NCBI RefSeq assembly: GCF_026151205.1
Contig: NC_087081.1
Coordinates: 2,545,246 to 2,609,245, forward strand
Direction: 5' to 3'
Origin: Bolinopsis microptera
Lineage: Eukaryota; Ctenophora; Tentaculata; Lobata; Bolinopsidae
DNA: 64,000 bases
A program made the position numbers and the translations under genes. Of the stretch, positions 8,269 to 62,521 are shown one piece after another; the stretch's first letter is position 1, and each line of letters begins with the position of its first letter. The notes beneath the pieces were generated by a model. The model saw only the letters and a list, made by a program, of their open reading frames with translations. It was not told the origin of the DNA and did not search any database.

Positions 8269-11200
8269 CTTTATGTTCGCACGCTCAGCCTTCAAATCGT
8301 GGATATCCTCATCCTTTAGATCCAACTCTTGGAGTAGATTGTTGTACTCTTTCGTCACTTTCTGGTAGTCCTGAATAAGCAATAACGAGTTAGGAGTGTG
8401 TTGCAGTTTATTGGTAATGGGGTAGATGTAATGGGGTATATGTAATGATTAGGTCTACTTCATAAGTGGCCGGGGATGAAGAATCTTCTCCCTCCGGAAG
8501 TCCTGAGTCACACTCATGTGGCATTGTTGAGGGCTTGTTCTACGAGAACTCGTGAGAGAACCTCTAGCAAGAGCTGTACTAGTGTGTACTAGTAGTGTGT
8601 ACTAGTGTAAACTAGTGTCATATTTACACTATATATATTGTGACCGGCTGTAGTTGGAACCGAACCAAGAACCTTCTCCTCGACAGACAAGTTTCTAATG
8701 CCTACTATCTGACTGGTAATGGAGCAGGCTGTTGATATGTTCGTCGTGGGAAAATGTTGTTAACACCCAATTGTTAATAATTTGCATAGAATGCCATATT
8801 AAGTCACTGATAGCTGAAGCTTGATACCCACTCTATTAAAATGTGGAAATACGGACTGATTTAGCAAAAAAACACGTACCGAAATAAGATCTGACAAAAA
8901 ACAAACAAAAAACAAACAAACAAACAAACAAACAAACAAACAAACAAACAAACAAACAAACAAACAAACAAACAAACAAACAAACAAACAAACAAACAAA
9001 CAAACAAACAAACAAACAAACAAACAAACAAACAAACAAACAAACAAACAAACAAACAAACAAACAAACAAACAAACAAACAAACAAACAAACAAACAAA
9101 CAAACAAACAAATAGATAAGATGGGTGTTTAACCTCTTCTAAGGGTGTCTTCTTAGCTTGAGCAGGGTTGAATTGGTCGCTCACTATCTCGTTGTATAAC
9201 TCCTGAAAGTAACGGGTTTTAAAATAAACAAATTTAAGATTTAGAATATGTTTATAGGTGCAATGTAAGTTATGTAAATTATAGGTTAAAAAGTATGATT
9301 GTGATGATTTTATCATTATCATCCATATTCTGTCAATATATATTTATTATTAAGCCTCTAGACTCAAGGTATAGTTCCATGAATTATCAACTCTCATACA
9401 CCTACATTCTACAAACAACATGTTTCTTGATCAAACTATGTATATCTGGTGACGTCAAGTGAAATTAGGTGACGTCAAGTGAAATTTGACGGACAATTTA
9501 CAACATTGACTTAACGTCCTGTACAGTGTACACTCGACATGTCTGACGAGTTAGGAACTGTAGGAACTGTAGGAACTGTCGTGGAACCAGCGTTTGACGT
9601 AGATCATGTAGGGAAATGGGATGTGTTACTGTAATTATTGTCGTATTTTGAATGACAATCAATAACTCTAGTCGGGTCCCAACCGTTCTAAAAGGCCATA
9701 TTGTTAGCTTTTCGTGTTAAAAGCGATTTCTCGACGGTTATCACCTCTTTAGATGATGCTTAAAACATTTTGACTCTATTGAATTTTTTGAACTTAATGC
9801 AATACGGCTGTTTTCGGCCACACCCTTTTTCAGGGTTTCCCGGACACTCGAATTTTTGTATTTCAGCCCAGAAACGTCGTAGAGACTGTTCCCATACACC
9901 AAAATGTGCCTAATAGCAATATTTATATACAACTTATGAAGCAACATATACCCTTAAAGGTTTATTTTCGGAAATGTGGCTGAAAAACGGATTTTTGCTA
10001 GAAAGGTCCTGAAGACTCATGAGCAACATAGCATTTGTCACAAGATGTAAGATGACTCACTCTGTGTCCAGAAACACCTAACAAAATTGGAGAATGATCT
10101 AGCAGCATATTTGTGTCTTACGAAAGGGTAATTTTTCAAAATTACGGTTTCTTTAGTAAAGGTCAAAGTAAAGGTCAAAGGGTCAGCTGCTAACAGAATT
10201 GTTCGCAATTGCCGACTCATGCACAACATATACTCAAAAACGCTCCGTTTAGGAGTAATTAGTAAATAAGTTTAACTAATGCATGATTTTTGAAAACTCC
10301 AACAATTTTTCATTGGCACCAATTTAGCCAAAATGTGATGACCAAAATTCAACTTTTAATTTATTCATTCCATGAAACTATGACATGTACTAAGAATACC
10401 GGACCTAAAATAATTCGGCACTGGATCCGGGCCAGATTGTTGCTTGACCACTGACCAGTAGCCCACTTTATTATTATAATTGACTTCGCTGCCTCGACCA
10501 ATATTGGTCTGTAAACCCTGGATTGAGATCTGTTGGCCCCAGTTTAATATAGCTCATTTACCATAATAATATAATAGCAATACCGCAAAAAGAATATGGG
10601 GTCATTCTGAAGTGGGAACCAAACCACTGCGGTATTATAGGAAATTAGCTAAATTTAAATAATGGATCCGGGCCAGATTGTTACTTGACCACTGACCAGT
10701 AGGCAGTACCCACTTTATAATTATAATTGACTTCGCTGCATCGACCAATATTGGTATGTTATCCCTGGATTGAGATCTGTTGGCCGCAGTTAAATTTAGC
10801 TAATTTCCTACAATACCGCAGTGGTTTGGTTCCCACTTCAGAATGACCCCATATTCTTACCATCCGACTCGAGATTTACCCACAGATTCGTTTCTCCAAA
10901 GTCGACCGATATAATTTAGAGATCTTCTGCCAAAATGTCAATGTGGTTTAATCCTTTGCGGTGTGAGTTTCTCACACGTCATGCCATTATAAATAATAAT
11001 AAATTAATGTTATTTTTATACACCCCAAAATGTTGAAATCATTTAAAAGATACTTTTAAACTTGAGAAGTTGTGCATCTTGAACTGACATGAGGTGACTG
11101 ATATGTGAAATATGAAACTGTTAAGAAAAGAGAAGTTTACATACAGTTTCTTGACCTTATTCAGACATGGTGACATAATATTACGCCTTACTTAAGTAAA

Positions 11201-14200: not shown

Positions 14201-17200
14201 AAAAATGTAACATTATTTCCCACGATAGCCACTGAGAAATGTGTAAGCTATATTATGTATCAGCATACCATTGCAAATATGCAGCATTTTCATACAATGC
14301 ACAAAAATGACGAATATATAATATATAATAACTATACCACAGACTATACTGTATACCGCATACATCACCGAAGTATACTTATCTGCAGTAATCAAGAACA
14401 CCTATTTCATATTTGACATCGTTTCTTACATTCAGAAGGCAATTTGCGGTACAAATTTCTAGGTGAAGTAAGATGGACAAATTCCTTGATTCAGATAAGA
14501 TATCAGATATCTATCTCTGCAAAGTATCTAGCTCTAGCCACAATCCAAATCTCGAACATACTCAGAGAGGCTCTGTAACCAGCACACACGTTGGAATATT
14601 GCAAATATCTTGAATTCCGAACCTTAAATATTTGTACTTTTACTGTGTAGCACGTTTTATTGCCCAACAGTTAAAACTCCTTCAGAATAGCATTAAAGAT
14701 ACTTAGCTATGTCGTATAAAATTTCTATATCGATCAGGGAATTCCTAAGTCAGGTGTTGTGATCACGTGACTTGTTGTGTTCACGTGATTCGAACTCTAG
14801 ACCAAGTAGATTTAAGTAATTTACATTATGCAGTTTTTAATGAGACACGTCAGCAAAATGAAAGCCAGATTTTGAGGTATATAAAGTTTGATGTAAGATT
14901 AAGAAATTGTTTTTTATTCCCCGTTGAAAGCATAATTTCATAATATTTGTGCAGCGCCTCTCTGAGATAGCGCCACGTTTATTGATCAAATGATATCTTC
15001 TCAAACAACAATTAAAATCATCTTCCTCTCTCATTCCACGGATCATGTGACAGATAATCATGCTGCTGGAATTTTGTCATCTTCTAATAATACTGGTGTA
15101 CACCAAAATAAAAATCGTATAATATGTCTAATTTTGTCTATCAATACTCGCAGTGTCGTGGTTATTAAAAGAAAGCGGCATAATTCAAAGCCGAGTTGAC
15201 ATTTGAAAATAACATGGCACTGATCCACCCGTCAAACTTCGCTAGTATTATTTGCGGCAAACAGCCCGGCAGTGTAAACTTCCAAACTGAGCAGGCCCTA
15301 GTTAATAATAATAATAATAACGCTTTATTTGTATACCGCTTAGGCCGTATAAGCGACCAAAGTCCAAAAAATGGAGTTGATACTGGCCAACAAAGCGGTG
15401 CAGATAAATTTACCTTAGTAGTCCCTTTTCTAATCAAAAATTCAAATTTATAAATTGTAGATTGATCTTAAAGTCCTGCGTCCATGACTACTGAATCACC
15501 AAAAATACTGTTCGCACATACAGGATAGGCTTGATGAAATAGATGGGTCTTGAGAGCCTTCTTGAAAACATCTAGTCGAGAGATGGAGCGTAGTGAGTAG
15601 GGAAGTGTATTCCAGATTTTAGGAGCAGTGTGAGAGAAAGCACCAGCTGTAGCCCTCAGCCTTGATAAAGGAGGGCGTTCCAGTAGGAAGAAGTCGTGGT
15701 CCATTCTGACATGATGTTTACTAGTGTCCCTAATTTTGACCATTGTCCTTAGATATTCAGGAGCACAATCGTTTAGGCACTTGAAAACCAGTAACGCTAT
15801 CTTGAATTTGATTCGCATTGCTACAGGTAAGAAGTGTAATTCAATCATATAGGGTGTGATGGGCTCCTGTCTCAACTTCCCATGAAGTCCGAATATGAAT
15901 CTCACAGCAGTATTCTGCACTTTTTGAAGTTTCTGGAGAAGTCGTTCAGAAAGGGCACCATAAGTAGCATTTCCATTGTCCAGAATGGAATGAATTGAAG
16001 CATGTACCATTTGGATTTTGAGCTCCTTACTCAGTTTGGAACCTATTCTGCCAAGATTTCGCTGATTTACATAACAAACTCTGACAACGTTGTTGATCTG
16101 TGCCTCTAAATTGAGATGGTTGTCAAAAATGAATCCCAGATTCTTTGCTGACTTGGTAGGTTTAATGGAGCATATGCTGTCAAGATTGAATTCAACTTGT
16201 TTTGGAGCTTTGGAGTTTGTAGAGATCTCGATTATCTCACTTTTATTGTCGTTGAGTTTCAGGTAGTTCTCACTCATCCATGATTTGATGTGCTCGAAAC
16301 ATTCTTTCAATTTGCTCTTCATAGATTCAATGTCCATGTCTTTCTTAGGATCAAATGAGAAGTATATCTGAGTATCATCAGCATATAGATGGATTTGGAG
16401 ACCATGCATACTTGCAATATCTTGTAGCTGTTTAGTGTAAAGGATGAAAAATATAGGACCAAGAATTGAGCCCTGAGGAACTCCAATCTCGAGGTCACAG
16501 AGAGAGGAATATTCACCCTTAACACCAACGATAAAGGATCGATTTGACAGGTAGCTTGCAACCCATTGAAGAATAATACCACTAAATCCATAGCTATGTT
16601 CGAGTCGTCTCAAAAGTCTTTTGTGATTGATGGTATCAAATGCAGCTGACAAGTCAAGAAGAAGAAGAACAGTATGACTCTTCTTGTCAACTTGGAGGAG
16701 TATATCATTATGTACCTTGAGCACTGCAGTTTCACAGCTCATGTTTTTCCGGTAACCTGATTGATTTGCTGCGAAAAGATTGTTCTTATTTAGGTACTCG
16801 GAAAACTGTGAGTGGGCACACTTTTCTATAACCTTGGAAATAAAACTGAGGTTACTCACAGGTCTATAGCTTTTCAAGTCGTCTGCATCTAGAGAGGCTT
16901 TCTTTAGGACTGGTCGTACTATAGCAGACTTCAGAGCATGTGGAAAATAGCCCTCTTGGAGGGATAGGTTAACTATGAGGGTGATATGAGGGAGCAATTC
17001 ATCGAGACAGTGCTTGAGGAGCCATGTTGGAAGAGGATCGAGTTCACACGACTTATTATTCATCGTCTTAGTAATCAGGGAAAGAACCTCTGATCGAGTA
17101 ACTAATCTGAAAGCTGTAGCAGAGCATGGTAGAGAACTATGTGTATCATTAGGCATCTCTAACTCTTTTACACAAGGTTTGTCGTCAGATTGACTATCAG

Positions 17201-20200
17201 CACTGGACAGGCTTTCCTCTGAGATAGACCCATAAATCTTCTTTACTTTATCGTCAAAGTAGTTTTTGAGACTTTCTGCAACTGCTTGATGCGTGGGCCC
17301 AGAAGGGGACTTCTGAGAAAGATCTTTATCCAGAAGGTTATTTATAATTCTGTATGTAGCTTTTGGATCTCCTTTAGCATCTGTAAGTCGTTTCTCATAA
17401 TAGCGATTCCGTTCTCTAGAGATGATTAAGGTAGTATCTACACAAGCTTCCCTGTAGATTTCTCTATAATCTTGAGCATCAGCCATACTTTTATGCTTCT
17501 TCCAGAGTCTTTCAGCAGCTCTGCGCTTTTTACGGGCATCATTGCAGTTTTCATTCCACCAGTCACTACGACCAGGTATAAAATAGATGTTCTTAGCTGG
17601 TGCATGCTTATTAAGAACTGAGGATATAACAGAATCGTATTTGTCGACTGCGTCATCTAAACTAGTTAGCTGGGATGGAGATGGCATGTGTAGTACAATG
17701 TCAGCTTTGAAAGCATCAATATCAATTTTGCTAAACTCACGAACTGTTTTTTGTTCCTTACTTGGCTGCTTTGATGACACATCAATCTCGGGTGCACTAA
17801 ACTTAACCAGGAAGTGATCTGACGTTGTGCCCGTGTCTTCCACAATTTCAAGCTCTGTGATGTTTAAGTTGTCAGCCGGTGATTCCAATGTTAGCACTAG
17901 GTCCAGTGTGCCGCCAGAGATGTGTGTTGGTGAGGAAACATGCTGCTTCAAGCCTTTTGAATGACAGAGTGCCATGAATTGTTTAGCCCAATAGTCTGGA
18001 TCCTCTACATGAAAGTTGAAATCCCCTGCTAATATAGGAATACCAGATTTAGTTATCAAGGTATCCATGTAATCAGAAAACTGTTCAAGAAACAATTTCT
18101 TTCGGGTTAAAACCTAAGGTTAAAACTAAAACAGAGCCTAATATTTAAACCTCAGCTACATGTTTATCTGAACTTTATAGTGAAGTAATCCTGAAGTAGG
18201 ACGGCACCTGTCATATTTAAAATTCCTGGTTTGTGTAAACAGATCCTGAAGTAGTATGACACTTGGACGACGCTTGTCAACACGAGGTTGTACTAGTAAT
18301 TCCGAACTTTGGCTCACTGCAGCTTTTTCAGGTTCCGAATAATTGGGGTACTAATTTCAATGTATATCGATGATCGATGTGGATTCAATCTTTTCAATAT
18401 GTTGCTAAAATATGTTTGCACTTGCACTATGCATACTGTTTGGAACATTGCAATTCAGTCATTTTTCTTTTTCTGAGAAATTCTATCAAGTTCGATGTAT
18501 TGCAGGATTGCAACATAAATCTGTAAAGTGTAAATGATGTCTATATTAACACCGGGTACTTATCTAGAGATTCGTTTAACACCGGCTGTAGATCAATTCA
18601 AGAATGGATTCACACTATATAATGGGGGTTGACGTGCTGTATTGTAATGTCGACGTTAAATCACATCAGATGAGGAATTCACAATTGTTCAGCATCAACA
18701 TTTCTGTACAATATGTTCATTATACAGTCCAAATACTGGAAAGTTCTAAACCTATTATTTACCCTATTTTATAACTTTATTTACGACTTACGTTGATACA
18801 GTTAAAGGAGGAACATGGTACAGTGGTCCATTACTAGAGCTCGCCAAACTTTTGTTGGCCTTAATATTACATCACGTGTAGCTAATAAGTGCAATCAGGT
18901 TTCTGTAGTGCAAGCAGAGCTCTCTATCGCCCACTATCTAGAACTTTGTGTGGCAGAACTTACCTTACTCAAAAACAAGAAGTCGTAATTAGACGGCAAA
19001 AGACGATGCTTCGTCTCAAGAATCAGTATTATGCCGCCAAAATCTAAGGTAAGGTTTCATCACGCCTCTTATCTATTGGAGTTGACATACTTACAGTTCG
19101 CTGTTCATAAATATGCGTAATTTTTGCATTTGTAACATGCGGTACGATAGTGAGCTAACGTGCCGTTCTATCATGTCTGTAGTTGTAGTTGTCAAGGAGA
19201 CAGCGTTGTCATGGAAACGGCATGATAATTGATATACTACTAATCTGACCATATTGGGTAAAACAAGACCATATTTGGTTGTAAATGATCACGTTTGGTA
19301 CTAAATAATAAGTCAATTTAATATTTACCAGATATAATAGCCAACTTGTTTTAAAATTATTCAAATTATTCAAATTAATCATTCGTTAAGAAATTACAAT
19401 AATTCCCATGTTTGGTATCAGTACACCACGTGACCAACGACCAAAAACTATTTTTAAAAGACCCAACAATCTTGAGAATCTGGATAATATCCGATGAATA
19501 CGTTGACCAGATTGAACTTGCAATAGGAATGCTAAACAACATACCCTGCATCACACGCGCAGACGCAAAACCTTAATCACGTGATAACTTTAGCACAGAA
19601 TTACTTTTTGCACTGCACTAATCTGCTCTCTGTATACCAGCATTTCCAAACAATCCCAAGCTGCAGCTGCATACACAACTTATAGTTCTAAAAATAGATC
19701 ACGACACGTTGAGCGTCCTAGCGTTTGCGGAAGATACATGTTGTTATATTATGTAGACTTACGAATAATAATAATATCATAGTGTGTATAATAAAACATA
19801 TTCAAAAGAATTTGAGTTTGAAAATTCCAACAGATCATGACCCAGCGTGTACGTGTTTTTGGGAACATCAGCTTTTGTGGGATGTCCGGGATCGTACGGT
19901 TTGCACTCTGCAGTAACGATCTCATTTCATTACACGTATAGCGTATTATGTGGAGTGGGCAGACTGAGAATAACAGCATATAGCTGTACTTGTCCACATT
20001 TGTTAGCTATAAATATAAAGATATTGTCCTCTAACAAACTTGGTATTTTCTATGACAGTTGTCCCGTAGAAATGTTAAAGCGTAAGCTCCAAGAAAGGTC
20101 TAATCACAGGCCATAAGCCAATCATGTTGCATACCTTATACCGTCATATCGTGATAAAGTTCCTGTTTTTGAGGAAGGATTCCTATTTTACCAAGTAAAG

Positions 20201-28236: not shown

Positions 28237-29130
28237 GTGATACTCGTAAAATATCTGTTCCATATATATTGGACTCAATTCAATGTGCAAGGATATGCAG
28301 ATGACCACCAGGTATATAAAACTTTCAAACCTTGTGATCAGGTAAATGTTCTGGGCATCCAAATTGTGAATTGCGCTAAGACCATACAGCGCTGGATGGT
28401 TGAATATTGCCTTCAACTTAATCCTGGAAAAACACAAATACTTATCATCGCCTCACCTCAAGTTCTAAACCAGGTCAGTATAGGGGGAGTTAAGCTATCA
28501 AATGGTACCTGTATCAGATTTGTCAGCACAACAAAGAACCTTGGTGTTCAAATTGACCATCATCTTACTTTTGAGCCTCAAATCATGTCCCTCAAAAAGC
28601 ATTGTTTCAGACTCCTTAGGAATGTAATAAGGAGAAAATATCTCTTTAGTAAAGCTCAGCTCAAGCTTATAATTAACAGCATCATTGTCTGCAAATTGGA
28701 CTACTGCAATGCTCTTTATTATGGAATTAGTGACAACCTCATCCACCAACTCCAACTCGTTCAGAATGCAGCTGCTAAAGCTATAGTAGGACTATATAAA
28801 TATGATCATCTAGGAGACACTCTGAAAGACCTTCATTGGCTGCCTATTAGTTACAGAATTCAATATAAGTTATTGCTTCTTGTCTATAAATGTCTTAATG
28901 GTATGGGACCAGATTATTTAAGTGATATGTTTAAATATGCCAATTATAATCATCTTATCTATTTGACTGAACCAAGAGTATATTCACAGTATGGAGAAAG
29001 ATCGTTTCAGAAGGTTGGCCCTAAATTATGGAATGAGCTGCCTCTTGAAATTAAGAATTGCATGTCACTGGAATCTTTTAAAGTGTATCTGAAAACGTTT
29101 CTTTTTAAACGTGTTTTTGATATTAATTAA
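28237..29130 (+). pseudogene. LINE reverse-transcriptase C-terminal fragment
   Basis: The open frame begins just before the catalytic YADD box (about 28294-28305, in QGYADDHQVY) and continues through the RT thumb to the conserved end (VGPKLWNELPLEIKN). Fingers, GVPQG region and endonuclease are absent; a hAT MITE and its partial relative occupy the preceding stretch. A (TTA)n tail at about 29323-29342 marks the 3' end. It belongs to the CR1/L2-like group and is clearly diverged from the element at 15303-18110. Confidence 0.85.
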
Positions 29131-39599: not shown

Positions 39600-42500
39600 T
39601 TACAATTCTTCTTTATTTTCCTTATCGTCCTTTTCTTCTACAACTTCTTCTTTAGGCTTCTCTTCAACAACTTCTTCTTTGGGCTTATCCTCAATAGTGG
39701 AGGTCTTCTCTTCAGTGGATTCTTCTTTCGGGGTTTCAACCGGTTTCTCCTCAGATTTTGTGTCTGCTTTATCATCAGATTTTGCTTCTTCCTTGTCTTC
39801 CAGTTTTGTCTCTTCTGCTTTCCCTTCTTCTGTCTTCTCCTCCTTCTTCCCCTCTTCGGTAGTCGTACTCTTCTTTGCTTCCTCTGCAGTCTTGGTACTG
39901 TTCTTCAGCGCCTCCATCATCTTAGCCAGTTTATCTTTGTACCACTGAGGGATTGGTTTCCTAACAAGATAGGACAAGTCCCGTTCAAGTGCTGTCTTCT
40001 TTGTCTTGATTACCTCCGACTTAAGGACCGGATCTACGTTCTTGGATAAAGCATCCTGTGCTTTTCCAGTTGTCTCAAGCCACTCCTGAAAGACAAAACT
40101 TGTTAGTTTACTGTTAGTTTAGCTGCGTGTAGTACTGATGAAATTAGCCAAAGGTTTCCTTGGAACCAGAGAATCAATTAGTCCCAACATCCAATAATTA
40201 AGTAGCCACCATGCATAAAAAGTGCATCTTAAAAAGGGCACAGCTGAAAGATAAAATCCGTTCGGACCTATAAATCTAAAGTTCTCTATAACTCCTCTCG
40301 CGCTCTCTTTTGGCTAATTTCATCAGGTTTAACATGCTTTTGTTTGCCTCGTCAAGAACTGTCAATATGTCCCGAGCGTAAGGGAACGACGGGTGGTAAT
40401 TTCCAGATTTGTTCTTGAGTCGGTCAAATTTCGACTGAAATATGTGTGCCACACATTAACAACAGCTTAAATGGAGTGAGGCTCAGCTGCGTTATGTGAA
40501 ATTGCGATGAAATGTAGAGATGGAATGTAGAGATGAAAGTGGACGTCTAAATTAGCTAATTATATCACTCCGCTACCTCCGAACCTATAATTGAGCTCAT
40601 GTTTGAACCCTTCCCTTTAAAACAAGCTCAACTACTCAATGAGAAATTGCCGTGAAATTGCGTCCAGAAGCGAGCTAATATTTAATCAACATACCAATAT
40701 TTGATCTCATTTCTGCTGCCCCCAACCCCCCCCCCCCCCCCCCCCCATATAAAAAGTTGTAGTATCCCATTACCTTGGTAGAGGTGAGCAGTTTCTCCAA
40801 GTTCTCCATCTCGACGGTAGTGTGGTAGCGGAACTCTTCCGAAGTGTTCGCTATCTTTACCAGGAACTGTTCTGTCAGGTTGAACGCTTGCTTCAAATCT
40901 GAAACGTGCGATTTGTTAATGTTACAGTTTCCACGTTTCATGTAACGTGCATTTTAACCCGGAATGTCCGTACAATATACTGTTTGTTTCCGTGGCGCAA
41001 ATTTGCAGATAATTTTTGTAATCAGACACACTGTAACTATTCGTATAATGCATTTAAATTGTATGTATTTACAAATACCAGCAAACTCATCACAAGTCAC
41101 ACACCGATTGTTATTATATTTATGTCGGAGCTAATTTAACTGAACTAGCCGACCAATTTAGACTCTTAAGTCAGGAGACAGGAGTCCAGGAGCTCCTGAG
41201 TTAGTGTCACAACTGCGCTCCATGCACATAATTGGATGCCCCGTGTTCTAACTATCCGCAATGCAGATAATTATGTCCAATATCTATACCGTTCCAACTG
41301 TGAAGCGACCAGACGTCGAGACCCCGACATATCTACATATCTACATATTTATCTGCAACTAAAAGAATTTCTACGGAACTACCAGAGTACCATCGGGTAC
41401 CATATGGTTCGGTAATTTAGAAGCGTGGTGAGGGTGTGCGCTGTAGGGTTTTTTTGGACAAGACTAAGGGGGACTAAGAGAAACGAGCACGTTATGAAAC
41501 TGATTTAAACTATTGTAGCATATTTAACAGTAAGGAAAATGGGAGCTAGCTGTTGAACTTCTTTGAAGTGACAAAACTCTCTCAAAATAATACGAGGCTG
41601 TGCTGATTAGAGCTGTTTGATTCAGCTTAAATAAACATGTCCAATTATCACGCTTATTTCAGTAATCATTCCTCCGACATCAATCTCGGGCATCCGGTAT
41701 TAACCTCGGGCTTTCCGGTACTAACCTCGGGCTTCCCGTCTCAACAATAATTCGATATTCATGCATACAATATCATTGTCTTCGCGTCTGCGGCTATCAA
41801 TCAACTTTCAAATCATCAAACAACTAGCTCCTAAATTCTGTTATCTTTAAAATTGATCGTTATCAGAATTTATCTTTGGCCGTAATCAATCATAAATCAT
41901 TTGTCAATCATTCGGTATCGTACTGTGTCATGCTGTTCAATAAATGATTCCGCTTATTTGATCAAAGTTTGAATCACTCGAGATCTCTCAAAGAATTTAA
42001 CACTACTTCAAGATTTAAGATTAAAGTGGATTTATCATTTTATTGTCCTAGATTCAAATTCTTGTCCCAAAATCAGGAGATGGAATCAGGTACTTTAAAG
42101 AAATCAGTCTGGAATCAGTTGGCACAGCTCCATATCCAACTTTACAACTTTCACGTGAATTCTACAAAAAACTAAAATTATTAAAGAAACTAAAGTTAAA
42201 AATCTAATTACGCATGCGAACTCGATCTCTACAATACTTCCCCGTAGAAAAGCTTAAAAATAAATTCCTCTCTGCAGTCTTTGAAAAGTTGAGAATTAAA
42301 AGTGAGACCAGTATAAAATCTTAGGGCATCATATGACAAAATTGTAAAATTCTATATATTCAAGGTCGGAACTGTGTAATTATCGGTTCAACCGTCAATC
42401 ATTGTTTGGGCTGCATTAGGCAGTAAATTCAAGTCTTTAAAAATTAATGTTCAGTTCACTTGCACTGGAGCTTCATTTGCAATAGAGTTTTTTTTGTCTT

Positions 42501-45500
42501 GATACAGTGTTCCAAATCACGACAAGCCGGGACTACCCGACAAGGGGAAGAGCAGGAAAAGTAGAAGAAGTACCAACAGTGATAAAGAAGAGATTGATGA
42601 GCGTGGCCGGCCAATGGCTCGTGTCGAGCCTCTGGAACCTGCCGAGGGGAGTAGTGTGTTCACTGCAATGTTATATTGTTAGTTTGATAGATTGTTGATT
42701 GTTACATTGTAGCCGTTTGAGGAGTTTCTTTTGCATTATGTTGCAGGTATCCAGGGTAACCGAGGTCGAAAGACTTCGCAGACTGATCAGTGAGCGATCA
42801 GCGACTACAGTGAGCGACTACAGTAACAGAGAAGTGTAGACCCTCAAGCATTTACTACAGGCTCAACAATTTATAGGGTAGTAATTCCTCATTGGAGAGC
42901 CACTACTTGAAGGTTCCGTCCAATCTGGTCGAGTCTTTGTTAGTCTTTAGTAGGAGAATCTTTGTCATTATCTTTAAGGTCTTTGATGCTTCAAGAGATA
43001 ACTTACATCTTTTCAGGTCGAAGAAATTACGGGTGAGGTACTGGACATTATCCTTGCTTTCTAACCAGCTCTTCACTTAGCTTGTTAATACTAGCGCCGG
43101 CACGCGGCATGTCTACGAGGGTGTTTACAGTGGTGCCAAACAAATTTGAGTCCAAGTAGAAGTGGCCTTCACAGAAATTGACCTGTGAAGACTGAAGATG
43201 GAGAGACAGAATCTGAAGCGGTGTTCTCCCTCCCTCCAGGGGAGTGGTGACCTAGTTTTGTGGTACCTCAGATGTATTATTGAAAGGAGTCGAGTAGTTT
43301 GCTTGAGGTCGATGGTTCAGCAGGTCAGGGTTCTGTATACCCACAGGACCGCTGTTTGGAGTATAATGCTGATTACTTGCAGTGTTCTGGTACGGCTGGT
43401 GCACTGGATGGCTGGCTGTTGGTACTGCTGCAGGTGCGTTTGTAGTGGTGAAGCTTCTGTTATTGTAACCGTTATCGTAGCCAGGCTGGTAAGCTGGGCT
43501 TTGATAAGGTTCTTGAGGTCTAACATCTTCTTGGTCTCTGTTAGGTCCATTGTAGATGGGTCCTTGTTCCGAGAAATGACCAGGTCTGCTGTTGCCAGGT
43601 CTACCATATCTTGGCGATGTGAAGTTAGGTCGTCCTATCTGTCCATTCAATCCACTAGCGCTCCAACTTCCCTCGTCTCTCATCTTTTTACGACAATCTC
43701 TTTGAAAGTGGCCATAGTTTCCACAATAGTGACACTGGACGCTGTTGTTTCGTCTTTGGTTTTGGACCACCGAGTAGTTAGGACAACCATTAGCGTAGTG
43801 ACCATACTGATAGCACTTGTGGCACTGTACTTGGCCTCTTAAGTTGCCAGCATGAGGCTGTTGGTCATATCTGGGATCAGCTGGTTGGCCAGGATTGTGA
43901 GAAGACAGCTGATTTATGAACTGCTGGGGATGATAATTTGAGCCTTGTTCAATACCATAGACTTGGCTTTGCTGCACTGCTCTACTTTCTGTTCCAAGGC
44001 GGCTCTCGTATTGGCCGACGGTATATTGAGGCAGGCCCATTGGATAATGATTGTGAGGTCTGTTAGTTTGTTCTGCTTCGCCTATGGCTAGTGATTCATG
44101 CTTGTCGATGCTAACTTCATTTTTAAGAACAGCGACGTGGACATTATCTTCATCACGTAGCGAAGACCTGGCCCTATAAGCTCCGTCCAACTTGACGGCT
44201 TTTTCGAGAGCAGTTTTAAAATCTATCTCAGGTTCATTTATCAAAGAAACAGCAATTTCATCTCTGTTCAATCCTCCAGTCAGGGCATCTTTTAAAATGG
44301 AGTGCATAGCGTCTTGTTCATCAGCAGTGTAACCTAATTTAGCCAGGTCCATAAGTCTTTCTCCGAACTCCGACACTGTTTCATCCAGTTTTTGTTTAGC
44401 TTTTTTCAGTTCGTATCTTGCTTTGACCGATCCACTGGGGGAGGTCAAGGCTGTAATCGCCTCTCTACGAAATTCTGCCCAGTCGTCCTTCCTAACTAGG
44501 TCATTGGCAATCAAGGCATTTAGTGACTTTTGGTCGAGATAAGTCAGGAAAGTATTAATTGCCTCAGCACCTGCAAGGTTCATTATCCTTCGAAAAGGTT
44601 CAAAGCTATCGAAATACGAAGTAATGTGAGAAGTGGTCGGGTCAAACGAGTTAGGCCGGCGACTCCCAGCAACTCCAGCTCTGAAGTCAACTTTGGCTTG
44701 GTTAGTAGCTTGCACAGCAGCCTCCCTTTGTGCTTGCATAATAAGGTTCTCCACGGCAGCTTTCTTTTCAGTACTCAGCTCAAGTGCTTCAATGGAAGCC
44801 ATTTTCAATCGATGAAATTATTACCAACTTCGGGATCAGGAGTCTTTAGAACTTCATTGCCCGGGTTCTCCACCAATTGTGCGCTGTAGGGTTTTTTTGG
44901 ACAAGACTAAGGGGGACTAAGAGAAACGAGCACGTTATGAAACTGATTTAAACTATTGTAGCATATTTAACAGTAAGGAAAATGGGAGCTAGCTGTTGAA
45001 CTTCTTTGAAGTGACAAAACTCTCTCAAAATAATACGAGGCTGTGCTGATTAGAGCTGTTTGATTCAGCTTAAATAAACATGTCCAATTATCACGCTTAT
45101 TTCAGTAATCATTCCTCCGACATCAATCTCGGGCATCCGGTATTAACCTCGGGCTTTCCGGTACTAACCTCGGGCTTCCCGTCTCAACAATAATTCGATA
45201 TTCATGCATACAATATCATTGTCTTCGCGTCTGCGGCTATCAATCAACTTTCAAATCATCAAACAACTAGCTCCTAAATTCTGTTATCTTTAAAATTGAT
45301 CGTTATCAGAATTTATCTTTGGCCGTAATCAATCATAAATCATTTGTCAATCATTCGGTATCGTACTGTGTCATGCTGTTCAATAAATGATTCCGCTTAT
45401 TTGATCAAAGTTTGAATCACTCGAGATCTCTCAAAGAATTTAACACTACTTCAAGATTTAAGATTAAAGTGGATTTATCATTTTATTGTCCTAGATTCAA

Positions 45501-48500
45501 ATTCTTGTCCCAAAATCAGGAGATGGAATCAGGTACTTTAAAGAAATCAGTCTGGAATCAGTTGGCACAGCTCCATATCCAACTTTGCAACTTTCACGTG
45601 AATTCTACAAAAAACTAAAATTATTAAAGAAACTAAAGTTAAAAATCTAATTACGCATGCGAACTCGATCTCTACAAGGGTAACATTTAATTGACACTTC
45701 TTTGAGAACTTCTTAGTCTAATTCTATTAGGGGTACGGTGTTGGTAGCTGGTGCTCAATGTGTACTAACTACTAACTATAACTGTTGTTTCAGAGCACAG
45801 TTGTTGTTCAAGATAAGTCGAATTTCGTAGATCTTAGTGGTTGAACTTTTAAGGTCATGCATTTTTTTTTTCGGTTGAGAATAAGCAGGTTCAATATCAT
45901 TACTTAGTATCTATCACCGATCCACCATTTATTGTCTATAAATCTGGAGGAAACTCTCAATCCTTCACCGTCACAAGTGAGACTTCAAGGTCATTATAAC
46001 CTGGTAATCTGACTGAAATACAATAATTCTTATAGAGTTAGTTCGAACCATCTGGTCCCTCCCTCTATCCTTCAACCCATACTGTTAGAACCAAAGAGTA
46101 ATGTGAGTTAAATACAATAGAATTAGTAGGGCCAGGTAACATGAACTGTGGCTCTTTTGGAACCAGTGATGTGTTAAATTGGTGAAATACTGAAGGAGTG
46201 TTGTGATGATCGCTGAGTAGCATTTCTGATTTGAAACAAATTGAGTTTACATTCCTGTTTAAAGAACCGGATTAATTTTATATTTTTATTCTCAAGGCTC
46301 AAAGTAGTGTGTAGATCGATTCGTCAAACCTCTTAGTAGTTCTTGTGAAGCGTATGTATAAGTGAGACTAAGATTTCCGATTTCAAACAGGTGCCCTTTC
46401 GATGATCAGTAAAGTTAACACTATTATTGGTCAATAGCCAACACCGCTTGTCCCACTTTTGTTCTTTTAGATTATCTACAGAAAACCGCATCTTTAGTCT
46501 CTTGTAAGGCAAATCGTTAACCAGAAACTGGCATTTATCTTTTATGTAAGGGTTTGTTAAATTAATTTTACAGGATTCCAGGGCTGGATAAATTGTTGAA
46601 AAGGTGTCGAAAGGCATTTGATTTGAGGGTTGACGCCTGACGGTAGAGTCTGCACTTAGTACGTTCTTAATACAGGTTTTATTGCATCACTATCAGTGAA
46701 AGTAAACGTAAAGAAAACTGCCAGATCCTTGCCCTGCTCCAATGCTTAAAAATGAACATATCAACCCTCAGCAATTACTCAACACCAGGGTCCAGGCCAC
46801 GTCAATATAAACATGATTAGTCGTTCTTCAATTTGTGCCGATGAAATTAATCTGAAGTTATCAGAATATGAGATGAGTGACTGTGACTGTGTCAGAATGA
46901 AAGTTAGCCTATTGAAAACGGAGAGCACTATTAAACCAGAAAATGAAACCATTTATAGACTCCACATAAACAAGCTGTTTAATTGTTTTCTTACGAATAC
47001 AGCACGCCTTCATCAAGGGGGGCCGTTTAAGAGCGCATTTTTAGATACCATCGCAACCATTCTTAGCAAAAAACAGCCCCTCCTCCATCGTGGGTACAAG
47101 TACAATAGCATAATGTTATCTGCAGCCCTACTTAAGTCCGACATTCTCACATTCCGACAGATTTCTAATTATCTGAAATGTCTGGGATTGCTCCTGGGCA
47201 GTTTGGAGGTTGGGGCGTGGAGACAGTCTCCACGCCCCATCTTCACAGCTCCACTGTTATTATCTACCAACGGGAACTTATCTGGAGTCATGATCGGAAT
47301 TTCAATAGTGTCACGTTGAAATTATCAAACTCTTATCTTTTATGTGGTGTGAAGATTAACATTATTAAGATATCACTCGCTAGAACATTAGATAGGCATG
47401 TTCTTGTTATGGCCAGCTAGAACGGACGGAATATGTTGGCTTTGAACGATTGTTCGTTTTGCACTCCTCATTTCTGTAGATCGCACTCTCTTGAAATAGC
47501 ACCAGTTGTTGATTAGAGGTGAATACCATTCTTCCTCCACCTATTAACCCGGATAATTGTGGCTTAAGAATGCTAGAGCTAGAGATGATAAAGCAGCTGA
47601 TAAGCCCACGAAAGTTAAGGCCGAAATCAGAGAAGATCAAGAAAATGTACAGCCTTTGTCACATGACAGTCACGTGCCAAAATCCCAAAGTTCGAACAAG
47701 ATACGGCCGTAACTGCAATATAATTGACAGTGGTTATCAAATATAAGCACCCTAGGACCCACGTGCCAACATATCCAGTCACGATGCCTAGCACTAAGCT
47801 ATTCCAGCACCTGTCCAAAATTATTAATAATTCGGCCAGAATTACTCATTTCAGGGTGAGTGTTGTAGTGCTGTATATTCCAGCACTTGTATCACATCTG
47901 GGTATTTAACTTAGGGAGGTCTACCTTACAACTGTACTTTGCCCGTTTCTTGGCAAAAGGTGGACTCCAGTGACCAGTTTGACCCCGAAAGTCGTCTCGG
48001 ATGTCTTGAGTCGCTTGTGATTTTCTAATTTCATGTGAGGCACCCTACAATTAAACATGGTTAAGAATCCCCTGGATGGCATGCATAATGTTAAAGGCCA
48101 GGATGGGTTTATCTTTAAAACATTGTTGCGGTATCACCACACATTATCCGGCGCACCAGAATGTTATGTACCAAATACCACGCGTTCCCCCTTGGCATGT
48201 CAACAACAGGGAATGCTAATATCCCCTTATGTCAAATAACAGGATGTCATTTAGTAAATTATCCTTTAGTAATGGGGCATATTTATGCCAACTATCGCTG
48301 GAATTCGTTGCAATCCTTGTTGTTTTCCGTTTGTTGCAGGCTTCAGTCCACTATAGACACATTGCTTGGGAAAAAGGAAACTGTTATTGTAATTTTATGA
48401 GTGCTTTTAGGACCATTTAAGGTCGTCAAAACTACACTTTGATTTTTTGCTGAAGTCGTAACGCTCGCCCTTTATTATCTCTAGGCTAAAACCGGATATA

Positions 48501-54500: not shown

Positions 54501-57500
54501 TCCTCCACATCTTCGTCCTGATCTTCACGCTCTACTACGACCAGGACACCCTGAACATCCTACTTCCTACATCCTACATCCTCATGATAACCTCCACCTA
54601 CACTTCAGCTCTGATAAATGTGAGCCTGGCTGTGGTGAGGACTATCAACATTGTGAACCCCCTCCAGAGGATCAACAGGAAGGCTGCTATCATCAGTATA
54701 TCAGCGTACTGGCTGCTAACAGTTACCGTGGCTGTTGTGGATGTCGCGTTTTGGAAGAGCGGATCTAGCATTGGACCAGGGTATGAGTATTACTACACTT
54801 TCATAAACATGTCCAGTTGCTATGGTATCATATCTCTTCTCCACACTAAAAACTTACTCCACCCGTTTATCGTAGCCAATCACAAAGCCCTCTTCCCTGT
54901 CCTTATATGGGTGATTCCCTGTGTTATCCCCTCTGTTTTCTGCCTCGTCTCCTCCTCAATACAGATCTTCTCTCTACGAAGAAGGAAACTCCTCCGACAA
55001 GAAGACCAGATCCACAGCAAGGTTACAATAACAATCCTTCTGCTAACAGTAACCTTCTTCATCTGCAACACCGTTAACTTCACCTACGTCTTCCTTATGT
55101 CGTACGGAGAGTGGATTGGGTACAAGGTGTTCCTCACCCTGTACGTGGTTACCAGCATGGTTCCCTTCATCAACACCCTGGTGAACCCCATCATCCTCGT
55201 CTCCAGAGGGCATCTTCTCAGGAGGTTCTTTGTGGGGTTCCTAAAGAGGAGGAGGAGGCTGACGAGCGGGGAGGTGTTGTTGGAGATGGAGTGTGTCCAG
55301 GGGAGGGAGGACTTGAAGATTGAGCATCCTGTCACTAGACAGGAGACTGTTGAGAGCTTTACAAGGACATTCAGTAGATAGTATGCTAAGTATGACGATA
55401 AAATATGCTGATGAAAACATGCTAAATATTCAGGTGAAAATATGCATTCAGTTGAACTTTAACTTTATTTGTCAGTGCCATTTGTTGGAATTTGAACCCT
55501 TTTAAAGACTGAAGGCGAGAATTTTGCCACATTTTTCAGGTTGGGTCAAGACTTATTTTATACAAATTATTCTGATTGCCGATTTCAATTACAGCGGTAA
55601 TCGCTAATATTTATGCTCAATTCGTGCATGAATGATTCTAACTATGTATCATTTATTTTTTATCTATTACCGTAAGTTGGACTTATTATTCATGGTCTGT
55701 GCGTCTCTCAGTTACATTTCATAAATTACAGAATCCCAGTTGCTTAATTATAATCTTTATTGAGATGGTTATTACAGCGGATCTTAGGGGTACTGCTAGG
55801 GCCGAGCCCGAAATTATAATTTAACGGTTGTTCTAAATATCAAAATAATAAACAGATAATCTCAGATTGAGTTTAAGACAATCAACTTATTTATTTGCCT
55901 GATCAAGTAAAAATAATTGAGTAATTAAATAATGATTAAGTAATTAAATAACTGACCAGCGATGGCGGCAGGACGTGCTTTCATCTCTTTAACTCTGTTA
56001 ATGACGGGGTCACAGTAATCTTCTAACGTAGCCAACCTTGCGTTAAACACCTTCAAAAAGGTGAGTAATTAGTAATTAGTATCTAATTATCAATTAGCTT
56101 CGTGCCACTGCAATTGTGATATATCCTCTACCTACACTGTCGGAATTTTTTCTATTAATTACAGATTGAAATAATAACTAATTAAGTAATAGTTAATCTC
56201 TAAAATAGTATTTATAATTAATTATCTAATTACCACGAAAGTTTCACCCCAACTGTCCTCTTCCAGCCAGTCTGTCTCCTTACTCAGTGCCTCCTTCATC
56301 TTCTCCATTTCTTTAGGTGTGCTGGCTGCTATGTACACATCTACATTGGGAGACGTGGATTTTAGCAGTCGCAGTTATGAGTTACACATAAAGTGACATA
56401 ATGAAAAGGAGCTGTAATTTTGTAGGACCTTTTCCGAAGAAGAAATAACGACTTAGTCACATCTCAGGTGACAAAGAAAATGTTGATATATCGTGTAAGA
56501 TGTTCTAGTTAAAAAGAGCAGAAGTCTGAAATGGGCATATTTTCTTAGTGAAGTGGATTGTATCTAATAGATAGAAACTAACCGTCATCCTCTAACAAAT
56601 CCTTCATGTTGATAACGAAAGATTCCAGGCTGTTCCTCGCCATTTCGGGGGCACGTTTATCATCATCTATCTTCTTCAAGGCTGCTAGTTTTTCTTTGCT
56701 AGGTTTTGTGTCAGCCAAAATGGGGATTCCTGGTAAAGATCAGGGTGTCAAACATCAGAGCAGTGACTTAAATAGGCAAGTGCCTATTTCCTTCACATAT
56801 TCAAATAATATCTAGGTCATATTTGACAGAACAAAACACAATCTAGTTTCACTGGTTCATTTTATACATTCATATTATTTAACAATGAAATATTATATAC
56901 GTAAATGTATGTTCAAGTTCAGGATTGTTTACAACTTACCGAAATGGATAGAATCCAGTTTAAGGATTTCTTTAATAGTAACAGGCTTCTCCGGAACAGC
57001 TTCAGTTTCATTCTGATGAAAATTTTATTTCACTGACATGATTGAAATATATTTAATTACTAAAAATTACATTGTGAGAAGAGTATCTGTATAATCGCTG
57101 AATACCGTGTTTGGACCTTGCAATTGTTCTCTAACTAAACAAGCACCTTAGCATCTTTTTTGACCTCCTCTTTATTTTCTTCGGTTTTCTTCTCTTCCTC
57201 GGGTTTCTTCTCTTCCTCGGGTTTCTTGTCCCCCTCGTCTTTCTTCTCATCTTCTTTCTTTTCTTCTCCAGCCTCACTTTCCTTCTTTTCACCTTCCTCA
57301 TCACTCTGGTTAAACAGGACGTTAAATTGGAAACTGTTGTGTATAAGATGAGAAAGTTAGTAAATTACAAGTTAAGTTCCGTTGCCGGTAACAAGACATA
57401 AAAGAGCAAAGCAAAAGTTAAACTGAAACAAAACCCCATAATAATTGCTTGGGGAAGAAAAAATGTACGGAATGTCGAGGACAACCTGTTTTTTAACATC

Positions 57501-59633: not shown

Positions 59634-62521
59634 ATGATATCCGGGCGATGCTTTTTGATAGTTTTTTTAGTTGTTGTTTTGAATGTTGATGCCCTTCTCG
59701 GCTCCAATCACCCACAAAAACCTCCTTCTAAAGAAAAGATAGTAATATCTATTGGACTGTACAGAAAAAACGCTCTTGTTCTGCCGGATGATGGATTTGC
59801 AGATTCTATGTGCTTAGATGATGCTTTTTATTTCATGCATATTAAAAATACCACCTCAAACAGATACGATAGACTTTATTATTTGGACCAAACGAGGGAC
59901 AGAGACAAATTACGTCGATCCGTCCACAATTATACTTGCCCCATGACAATGAATATTGGCAATTTACGTTATTATGATGTGTCAAACATTTATGATTATC
60001 TAACATTGGACAAGACAAATTGGAAGTGTTTGATCCCCAAAAGTTATGTCTGTGATGGTTACTCTAATTGCCTAACTGACGAGTGTAGATGCGGAAGTAA
60101 TACTACTGAGAACCCTGTCTTCTACTGTGCTCAACAGCCTGGATGTGTTACTTTTCTACAGGTAACGAATACAGTTTTCTTATAACATTAGTTGTGTTAA
60201 TCATCATAGTTATGACATAGTTAATGGTATTGGTTATGACATGGTCAGGATTATAGTCTATGCCCAATATTAATAGGGAATAAACCAATGTTACAATTTT
60301 GCTCAGGGTAGAAGTATTTACCCGTTGAGTCAAAACCTGCATTAGATGAGCAATTCTATTCGTTTGTATATATTACCGTGTAATATATACCAACACTACA
60401 TAATATGCAGTAATAGGAGAGCGAGCGAGGAGGGAGAATATGTGAGCCATTTTATCTAACATTTGCAGTACAAAACCATCTATTAAACCACTTTCCACCG
60501 ACCGATTTGAAAAACCTTTACCATTTGGCTTTGTCAGTTTTGTCGGCACTTTACCGACAAAATCAGCCCCGTAACTCTTACTGTTTTCTTGATAAAGCCG
60601 CTCGGAAATTACACACGCACGCACACACACACACACAGAAAACACACATTCTGAGATTATTGTTTAAGATACCGCATTCTCTGATATTGTTTTAAAACTC
60701 TACCTCCGAAAACAGGTTTGCGATGACGTCATGAACTGCTTGGACGGGAGTGACGAGTGTCTCTGTCAAAACCATGTGCACGTAAAACTTAACAATCAAA
60801 CGATATACTGTGTCTCAGAAAGAATCTATTGTACAATATTTTTTCCGGACAGAATTATCTACCAAATTCATCCCCAAGTCGATTGTAGTGCTCACAACCT
60901 TAGTAAGAATAATTTCAATCCAATCGAATTATGTATGAGGGAGCATTTTTCAATGCTGTTCCAGCTTTCAGACGCCCAGATAGTTGATCTTTGTGAACAA
61001 AATTGCAGCAGTTTCTTTAAACAAGACCACTGGCCTAAGTTTTGCAAGCTGTTGACCCTGAGTGTGCATGGGTTTCCAGAACTATCGTGTGAAACCATAG
61101 GAGCAGAGGCCGAGGGAGTCTATCGTAGACCCGGCATGGAATCGATTTGTGATGGTAAAGCAGACTGTGTGAGTGGGGCAGATGAAGAAGGATGCCCAGG
61201 CAGATTCTACTGCTATAATAATTCGAACAGCTTGTCTACTCTTACCAAAACAAAAATGTGGGTCCCAGCGCATAAGAAATGCGACCAAGTGAAAGATTGT
61301 CCAAACAGCATGGATGAGTGTAATCTTGACTGTGATCTAGATAACATAGCTTCTCCAAAATCCCTCATAAAATCATACGCTCTTTCATGTTTAAATGTCA
61401 TCTTCGGATTAGCAGTTTTGATACTAAATGCAATGAACGGATATAAAGCAATGAAAAGTACTGCCTCTAATTTAATCGCAAAAACTGATAGACTTCTGTG
61501 CATGCAAATATTTGTATATGACTTTATTATGGGAATCTATCTCTGCTTCATCGTGGTGGCATCTGTCGTTCTCCGATACAAAGGAGACTATTGTGTACTC
61601 TCTGACTGGTGGAGGTCGAGTGTTTACTGCGATATTTTGGGGGTGATTTTCTCTTTTTCAACTCACGGATCTCTCTTGATAGTTTCTCTGATGAGTATTG
61701 TGAGAAGCATCCAGTGCACTGTGTCATTTATCAGGATTCCTTACAAAGCCATTATTTTACTGTCCTGCATCATTTTCATACTTAACTTGATTCATGCAAT
61801 GATTCCTGCAGTAAAGCTCCCCCAAATTGAGCACATCTTCAAATCGAACATTTTTTTGCTCAACATTGCTGAAAATCCGCTGTTGAGCTCCTTTGATGAA
61901 CAGCACATAGCAGATGTGTACCACACATTCATTTCAAACCAGACTACTAAGTACACTACAACGATGCTGAATGAATTAAAGCAAATAACAAGCATGCCTG
62001 AAATCTTCGACTTTACAGTAATTGGATATTATGGAACCACACCGATTTGCATACAAAACATATTCCAAGAACAGGAATCTTACCGAGCTTATAAAATTGG
62101 GTATTGTACTGTCATATCCGTACTGTTAGCTGTAGTTTCTGTATCGTATATTCTAATAGTTGTGAAGCAAAACAAGTCAGCTGCTACCGCACAGAACAAC
62201 CAGGGAGATCATCAGCAAAACAAAGACCTTCTCATAAAGGTTTCCTTGATGATTGGATCTCAACTGGTAAGCTGGGTGTCCCTAATGATAACCGCTAACT
62301 ATTTCTTTGGCGCCGACGGAAGTTCTGCACCAGAATATGTATTTGAAGTTTTCGCCCTGTTTGTGATGCCTATCAACAGTTTACTAAACCCAATATTTTA
62401 CAGTGGTATGTATAAATATGTCAAGCAGAAAGTTTCATATATTATCAGTGCTATTAACAAAAGACTCGCTCCACCTGACCAACCAGAAGAAAATGAAATG
62501 AACAATATCAATCCAACTTAA
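59634..62521 (+). CDS. LDLa-containing seven-transmembrane receptor (relaxin/LGR-like GPCR without LRRs)
   Basis: Exon 1 59634-60161 and exon 2 60716-62521 join in phase 0 (CAG|GTTTGC) to give 777 residues. The first in-frame ATG is followed by a signal peptide (CFLIVFLVVVLNVDALL). Cys-rich LDLa-type modules follow: about 131-153 (VCDGYSNCLTDEC), 165-193 (VCDDVMNCLDGSDEC, split by the intron), 301-336 (ICDGKADCVSGADEEGC) and 342-382 (KCDQVKDCPNSMDEC). The D-x-SDE-type calcium ligands are kept. The 7TM domain runs from about 396, with GIYLCFIVVAS in TM2, IVRSIQC in place of the ERW/DRY motif and NPIFYSGMYKYVKQ at TM7 (about 734), which is close to glycoprotein-hormone/relaxin receptors. No leucine-rich repeats occur between LDLa and 7TM. 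Plasma-membrane receptor; ligand unknown. Confidence 0.92.
60283..60660 (-). mobile_element. Helitron-related fragment in the LDLa-receptor intron
   Basis: On the minus strand it shares several blocks with the 51079-52623 elements: the GGTTTTGACTCA-type block, the ACGGTAAGAGTTACGG-like block, TAATTTCC and the GTGTGTG run. Order and ends are altered, so this is a diverged or rearranged relative. It fills most of the 554-bp intron. Confidence 0.65.

What the first reader, a model, noticed from the sequence alone, without database searches (positions are those of the whole stretch)
41435..45676. Very recent gag-only LTR retrotransposon in HYOU1
Two 799-bp LTRs differ at one site seen, the AGGG target duplication is intact and gag is uninterrupted with two CCHC knuckles, yet RT, RNase H and integrase are missing. 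Such TR-GAG/BARE-2-like elements rely on another element's enzymes. Near-identical LTRs imply that mobilisation happened very recently, so an active helper should exist in this genome.
Basis: partly seen in the sequence, partly recalled or inferred. Interest (0 to 1): 0.75.

Follow-up and report, generated by a model that had tools for sequence, protein, structure and literature searches.

The report
Gag-only retroelement with traced helper
A stripped-down retrovirus-like jumping gene in an animal genome has lost its copying enzymes, and scars of recombination suggest that it has been copied together with a fuller relative that still has them.

Summary
Confirmed: two 799-bp LTRs with one difference, AGGG duplication, an open 516-codon gag with two CCHC knuckles, no RT, RNase H or integrase. 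Not an assembly gap: four copies at four sites, each with its own 4-bp duplication, share both deletion junctions. The predicted partner exists: two pol-bearing copies with near-identical LTR ends, the same tRNA-Ala primer site, gag, pol and an env-like frame, each with identical LTR pairs. Recombination links them. Gag-only copy C8 carries about 660 bp (3' internal end plus the first part of the LTR) almost identical to partner C12, then gag-only-type LTR; the window copy has a partner-type patch in gag. So it is a gag-only (TR-GAG-type) derivative, not BARE-2-like (BARE-2 lacks gag). Selection on the gag-only lineage's own gag is not established. Most unusual: the partner carries an intron-containing gene antisense to gag-pol-env, of which the gag-only copies keep damaged exons; its origin is open. 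Present activity, polymorphism and expression were not testable; the HYOU1 context is plausible, not proven.

The parts
41431..41434 (.). target-site duplication AGGG
41435..42233 (-). 3' LTR (element reads on the minus strand)
42234..42247 (-). region of the polypurine tract next to the 3' LTR; the 30 bp here are identical in 5 of 6 copies, one difference in C2
   Evidence: PPT assigned by position only
42234..42777 (-). block C: 3' end of the partner's internal region, downstream of its env-like frame (86-88% identical)
42527..42646 (+). remnant of antisense exon as1 (start codon and 5' splice site altered)
42747..42794 (+). remnant of antisense exon as2, cut by the second deletion junction
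42778..42823 (.). second deletion junction (env-like frame removed), with a small tandem repeat that varies between copies
42823..43049 (-). block B: sequence that lies upstream of the partner's env-like frame (about 87-88% identical)
43017..43052 (+). remnant of antisense exon as3, cut by the first deletion junction
43048..43251 (-). protease stub after gag, ending at the first deletion junction (rest of pol removed)
43252..44802 (-). gag frame, 516 aa plus stop, two CCHC knuckles
44858..44875 (-). primer binding site, 18 nt complementary to the 3' end (with CCA) of a tRNA-Ala(AGC) gene of this genome
44878..45676 (-). 5' LTR
45677..45680 (.). target-site duplication AGGG

Best explanation
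A non-autonomous, gag-only derivative of a Ty3/Gypsy LTR element that has an env-like frame. An ancestor lost pol and the env-like frame by two internal deletions, once (inferred from shared junctions). Its RNA keeps the LTR ends, primer site and PPT side and still encodes Gag. It is packaged with, and reverse transcribed and integrated by, the enzymes of the pol-bearing partner. Shown: the structure, the shared junctions, the partner in the same genome, and mosaics of the two. Inferred: that the mosaics arose by template switching in shared particles, and that the partner's pol did the work. Open: whether the element's own Gag is used.
For: LTR search of the genome: 43 matches, 16 full length, of which 8 are in four gag-only elements, 4 in two pol-bearing elements, 4 single. 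6 of 6 full elements have perfect 4-bp duplications. LTR pairs of gag-only copies differ by 1 of 799, 3 of 822 (plus 7 gap columns), 0 of 818, 0 of 768; of partners by 0 of 807 and 0 of 809. The window interior matches the partner in three separated pieces: gag 91%, block B 87%, block C 86-88%. The first 20 bp after the 5' LTR are identical in 6 of 6, the 30 bp before the 3' LTR in 5 of 6. Partner Pfam hits: protease 4.5e-10, RT 4e-19, RNase H 9e-27, integrase H2C2 7e-20. C8 LTR: partner-type at 22 of the first 23 informative sites, gag-only-type at 48 of the next 49 (0 of 5000 shuffles as extreme); C8 differs from C12 at 3 of the first 487 LTR bases and 3 of the last 177 internal bases. C2 LTR: a shift near its start (sites 11-137 partner-type 7 of 7; 0 of 5000). 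Window gag region: 18 of 21 informative sites at 729-1029 partner-type, 2 of 61 elsewhere (0 of 5000). RT search: two matches at 100%, the next at 63%.
Against: DNA-level recombination or gene conversion could also make mosaics; the U3/R boundary was not mapped. Other Ty3/Gypsy elements could supply enzymes: 104 RT matches were scored out of 291 candidates. The integrase core (rve) hit of the partner is below its cut-off. Among gag-only copies the last 185 gag codons show no excess of silent change (1:7, 2:12, 3:14 silent:replacement), and C1 has a broken gag, so use of its own Gag is not shown. The window patch could instead mean that C8 and C2 hold a third type there. No expression or polymorphism data. 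Genome searches with gag and env-like protein did not complete, so counts rest on LTR, internal DNA and RT searches.
Confidence: 0.85

Rival explanations
1. An ordinary autonomous element whose copy here lost pol after insertion, or an assembly gap.
For: Pol and env-like frames exist in close relatives.
Against: Four copies at four sites share both junctions and have separate target duplications.
Confidence: 0.02
2. The deletions are copies of spliced RNA rather than template jumps or DNA deletions.
For: One deletion removes most of pol and the other the env-like frame; a GTAAGT motif lies near junction 1.
Against: Junction 1 joins ...GCAAGGAT to ...TGTCCAGTA with no GT-AG at the edges and a short similar stretch on both sides; junction 2 carries a small variable repeat. 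The GTAAGT coincides with the acceptor tract of the antisense exon as3.
Confidence: 0.07
3. Semi-autonomous mutualist: the gag-only element feeds Gag to shared particles, as proposed for RLG_Quinta. This is a refinement of the best explanation, not its opposite.
For: Gag open in 3 of 4 copies; dN/dS 0.39-0.49 among them; silent excess in the first 331 codons (P 0.001-0.02).
Against: No silent excess in the last 185 codons among gag-only copies; whole-gag excess is borderline (P 0.06, 0.08, 0.013); the 5' part has exchanged sequence with the partner, so its constraint may be the partner's.
Confidence: 0.4
4. Mosaics come from gene conversion between chromosomal copies, and the enzymes come from some other Ty3/Gypsy element.
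For: Many other RT-bearing elements are present; conversion cannot be excluded from sequence alone.
Against: C8 has the same mosaic in both of its LTRs, continuing into the internal region on the 3' side, and identical LTR pairs, as one reverse-transcription round would leave; LTR ends and primer site fit the partner.
Confidence: 0.1

Closest known systems
[quoted passage not shown] passages of PMC10552921 seen)
   Same: Two LTRs, gag only, no pol, depends on another element.
   Different: Animal genome; derived from a Ty3/Gypsy element with an env-like frame; partner and mosaics with it identified here.
RLG_Quinta with RLG_Cereba, wheat (PMC11302176, abstract and section 5 read)
   Same: Non-autonomous element with gag paired with an autonomous element sharing PBS and LTR ends.
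   Different: Centromere-specific, 935 and 2,658 full-length copies, second half of the LTR conserved; here few copies on several contigs, and the first part of the LTR is the more conserved.
BARE-2 (title 'Life without gag' seen in the reference list of PMC10552921)
   Same: Parasite of a relative.
   Different: BARE-2 lacks gag; this element has gag and lacks pol.
TelKA and TelKA2n of bdelloid rotifers (PMC5408684, passages seen)
   Same: Animal LTR elements with a paramyxovirus-F-like env; TelKA2n is a non-autonomous derivative lacking most of pol.
   Different: TelKA2n keeps the env-like ORF and loses the end of gag; here gag is kept and the env-like frame lost.
Retand and other plant Gypsy elements with antisense extra ORFs (PMC11963269, passages seen); HBZ of HTLV-1 (mentioned there)
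   Same: A coding region antisense to gag-pol between pol and the 3' LTR.
   Different: Here three exons, with the env-like frame inside the second intron; the word 'intron' has 0 hits in the main text of that paper.

Membership tests
TR-GAG | paired LTRs and primer binding site, PPT | tested here: met
   PPT by position only
TR-GAG | gag present, pol domains absent | tested here: met
   (protease stub remains)
TR-GAG | several copies with this structure | tested here: met
   4 copies
BARE-2 | gag lost, pol kept | tested here: not met
   gag kept, pol lost
Ty3/Gypsy (partner) | protease, RT, RNase H, integrase in that order | tested here: met
   Pfam on pieces in order; integrase by H2C2 and p58_C above cut-off, rve below
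Errantivirus-like Gypsy with env (partner) | third ORF encoding an envelope fusion protein | tested here: inconclusive
   770-codon stop-to-stop frame; Fusion_gly E 9e-4, below its cut-off; PAN_1 just above its cut-off
Semi-autonomous gag donor (RLG_Quinta type) | gag maintained by selection in the non-autonomous lineage | tested here: inconclusive

The most novel reading that the evidence does not exclude
The partner carries, antisense to gag-pol-env, a three-exon protein gene (as1 basic, as2 coiled-coil-like, as3 acidic tail; GT-AG introns, phase 0), with the env-like frame inside its second intron. It is either an HBZ-like antisense regulator of an animal Ty3/Gypsy retrovirus-like element, or a host gene picked up with its introns in the orientation that preserves them. 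The gag-only lineage has shed it.
Probability: 0.45. Interest if true: 0.7.

Novelty: new member of a known kind. Interest (0 to 1): 0.48.

Why it matters
It gives an animal example of the pairing of a gag-only element with a fuller one, a pairing that the papers I saw describe in plants, with the partner in hand and mosaics that suggest shared packaging. The lineage is older than its insertions, so it can be used to ask whether a gag-only element is a parasite or a Gag donor. If the antisense spliced gene is real, it would be an intron-bearing accessory gene in an animal Ty3/Gypsy element.

Tried and rejected
Splicing as the origin of the deletions was checked and not favoured. Pol as an assembly gap was rejected. 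The gag-region tests used a wrongly cut region and were redone; the LTR tests stand. In one search the window LTR showed no useful mosaic (1 of 52 sites partner-type). Pfam on the three antisense exons gave nothing above cut-off. An antisense gene was sought in 2,001 bases of the next-nearest pol relative (63%); none found by tblastn, but most of its 3' region could not be fetched, and the DNA comparison did not run for want of its query file. In the genome-wide exon searches no match lies at the places of the other RT matches. Rfam on the window: 0 matches. PDB search with flanking HYOU1-like exons: nothing convincing. Paper searches: (listings seen); of five papers I saw parts (PMC11302176 abstract and section 5; passages of PMC10552921, PMC11963269, PMC5408684; abstract of PMC9040795, not used). 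No claim of absence from print is made. Results against the antisense gene: C12 against C125 shows no significant silent excess (P 0.16), and within the C11 array as2 copies differ mostly by replacements (0:7, 2:6, 2:7, 0:2, 0:5, 2:8 silent:replacement); as1 has a stop in three C11 copies.
Full report
What is there. The window holds an LTR element on the minus strand, 41435-45676: two 799-bp LTRs with one difference, AGGG duplication, an 18-nt primer binding site, an open 516-codon gag, and about 1 kb of non-gag sequence. The primer site is complementary to the 3' end (with CCA) of a tRNA-Ala(AGC) gene of the same genome. RT, RNase H and integrase are absent; protease is cut to a stub.

The family. 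A DNA search of the genome (264.65 Mb, 232 contigs; an animal, inferred from its gene content and TTAGGG array, species unknown) with the LTR gave 43 matches, 16 of them full length. Eight belong to four elements of the same gag-only build on C10 (window), C1, C8 and C2; four to two longer elements on C12 (12.5 kb) and C125 (11.35 kb); four are single LTRs, three with perfect 4-bp duplications and one matching at three of four bases. The other 27 matches are partial. All six full elements have perfect 4-bp duplications; C8 sits in a TTAGGG array. LTR pairs: C10 1 substitution in 799, C1 3 in 822 plus 7 gap columns, C8 0 in 818, C2 0 in 768, C12 0 in 807, C125 0 in 809. Between gag-only copies the 5' LTRs differ by K2P 0.026-0.063. 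So each insertion looks young and the lineage older. No mutation rate is known here and no date is given.

The partner. C12 and C125 carry the same gag, then an overlapping pol frame with protease, RT, RNase H and integrase, then an env-like frame. In C12 pol is interrupted by a foreign stretch with a reverse-strand RNase H-like frame (by eye); the frames listed in C125 are open. The env call is tentative: Fusion_gly E 9e-4, below its cut-off, and PAN_1 just above its cut-off; the integrase core (rve) is also below its cut-off, H2C2 and p58_C above. An RT search scored 104 of 291 candidates: two at 100% (C125, C12), the next at 63%, then 49% and less. The C125 insertion is missing at two paralogous places (C10:14.315 Mb and C11:12.808 Mb; left flanks 98.5% and 98.2%, right flanks 95.9% and 95.5%), with CGAC present once; these are paralogues, not necessarily alleles.

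How the gag-only form arose. Its interior equals three separated pieces of the partner: gag to the start of protease, a block from just before the env-like frame, and a block from after it. Junction 1 has no GT-AG and shows a short similar stretch on both sides; junction 2 carries a small repeat that varies between copies. All four copies share both junctions, so one origin is the simplest reading.

Mosaics. In C8 the first ~480 bp of the LTR are partner-type at 22 of 23 informative sites and the remainder gag-only-type at 48 of 49 (0 of 5000 shuffles as extreme). The match is to C12 in particular: 3 differences in 487 LTR bases against 16 to C125, and 3 in the last 177 internal bases. A 3' internal end plus U3 from one RNA, with the rest of the LTR from another, is what strand transfer between two packaged RNAs would leave; the U3/R border was not mapped, so this is inference. 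C2 has a shorter partner-type stretch near the LTR start (7 of 7 sites at 11-137; 0 of 5000). In the window copy 18 of 21 informative sites at gag-region positions 729-1029 are partner-type against 2 of 61 elsewhere (0 of 5000), and C1 has a shorter patch at 728-782 (6 of 6; 1 of 5000). C8 and C2 show no clear patch in the gag region (1590, 390 and 470 of 5000 shuffles as extreme). The window patch could also mean that C8 and C2 hold a third type there.

Is gag used? Gag is open in three of four copies; C1 is frameshifted early. dN/dS among the three is 0.39-0.49. Against simulated unselected change the whole-gag silent excess is borderline (P 0.06, 0.08, 0.013). The first 331 codons show an excess (P 0.02, 0.016, 0.001); the last 185 show none (1:7, 2:12, 3:14 silent:replacement). 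Compared with the partner C125, both parts show an excess (P about 0.02 or less). Because the 5' part exchanges with the partner, I do not claim selection on the gag-only lineage's own Gag.

The antisense gene. In the partner, the strand opposite to gag-pol-env holds three exons with canonical sites and phase-0 joins: as1 (41 codons, basic), as2 (54 codons, coiled-coil-like by eye), as3 (37 codons and stop). The env-like frame lies within the second intron. Genome searches found as1/as2 relatives at C9 and C11 and as3 relatives at C2 and C9. In the fetched stretches of these loci no protease-RT or RT-RNase H match was seen at E 1e-3. They are not clean of element sequence, though: C9 holds ends of integrase and env-like frames, a gag-like stretch (24% identical, E 3e-9, L032) and a distant env-like stretch (23%, E 9e-6, L031); C11 copies keep the last 18 codons of the env-like frame; C9 and C11 hold LTR-like pieces in the opposite arrangement, and C9 an LTR end with the primer site. 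So C9 and C11 may be old relatives of the element; in C2 only the as3 part and the intron end before it matched. as2 is open in the 7 copies I examined of the 10 matches, and every other frame of these 7 has a stop. Silent changes exceed the neutral expectation in 14 of 14 comparisons between diverged loci (P 0.002 or less, not independent), not in C12 against C125 (P 0.16) nor in the six within C11. dN/dS: 0.12 C9-C125, 0.36 C12-C125, 0.18 and 0.24 for two C11-C9 pairs (which stopped part-way). This supports a real coding exon. Whether it is a host gene captured with introns or an element gene left in the genome is open. The gag-only copies retain only damaged exons.

Place in what is known. 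Gag-only non-autonomous elements are known as TR-GAG in plants, and wheat RLG_Quinta with RLG_Cereba is a close parallel in logic (PMC10552921 passages; PMC11302176 abstract and section 5). BARE-2 is the reverse case. Antisense extra ORFs are known in plant Gypsy elements (PMC11963269 passages). Bdelloid TelKA2n is an animal non-autonomous derivative of an env-bearing family (PMC5408684 passages). So the element is a new member of a known kind; the partner's antisense spliced gene is the part most likely to be new.

Noticed in passing
C11:753-772 kb and 898-925 kb (L033, L034, L036-L038): Arrays of as1/as2-like exons lie on opposite strands, with HSP70-like pieces at the outer ends (C11:753404 minus, C11:924257 plus): may be a large inverted duplication.
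   Followed up: no
C2:7.04-7.13 Mb (L041, L042): Repeated units, some 1.9 kb apart, share the as3-like last exon but have a different upstream frame with a cysteine-rich stretch (CRICTK...); a small multigene family or another mobile element.
   Followed up: partly
window 15468-18095 (minus) and 28237-29130 (plus): Long open frames that look like non-LTR retrotransposon reverse transcriptases (by eye).
   Followed up: no
window 8861-9322: Open frame made largely of a simple repeat (VCLF units).
   Followed up: no
L013:252-1172: Reverse-strand frame with an RNase H-like sequence (by eye) inserted in the C12 partner's pol.
   Followed up: partly
window 54584-55381 and 60731-62521 (plus): Receptor-like frames (by eye) on the plus strand between the HYOU1-like C-terminal exons and the HSP70 pieces beyond the window; nested genes in a long intron, or a sign that the two are not one gene.
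   Followed up: no
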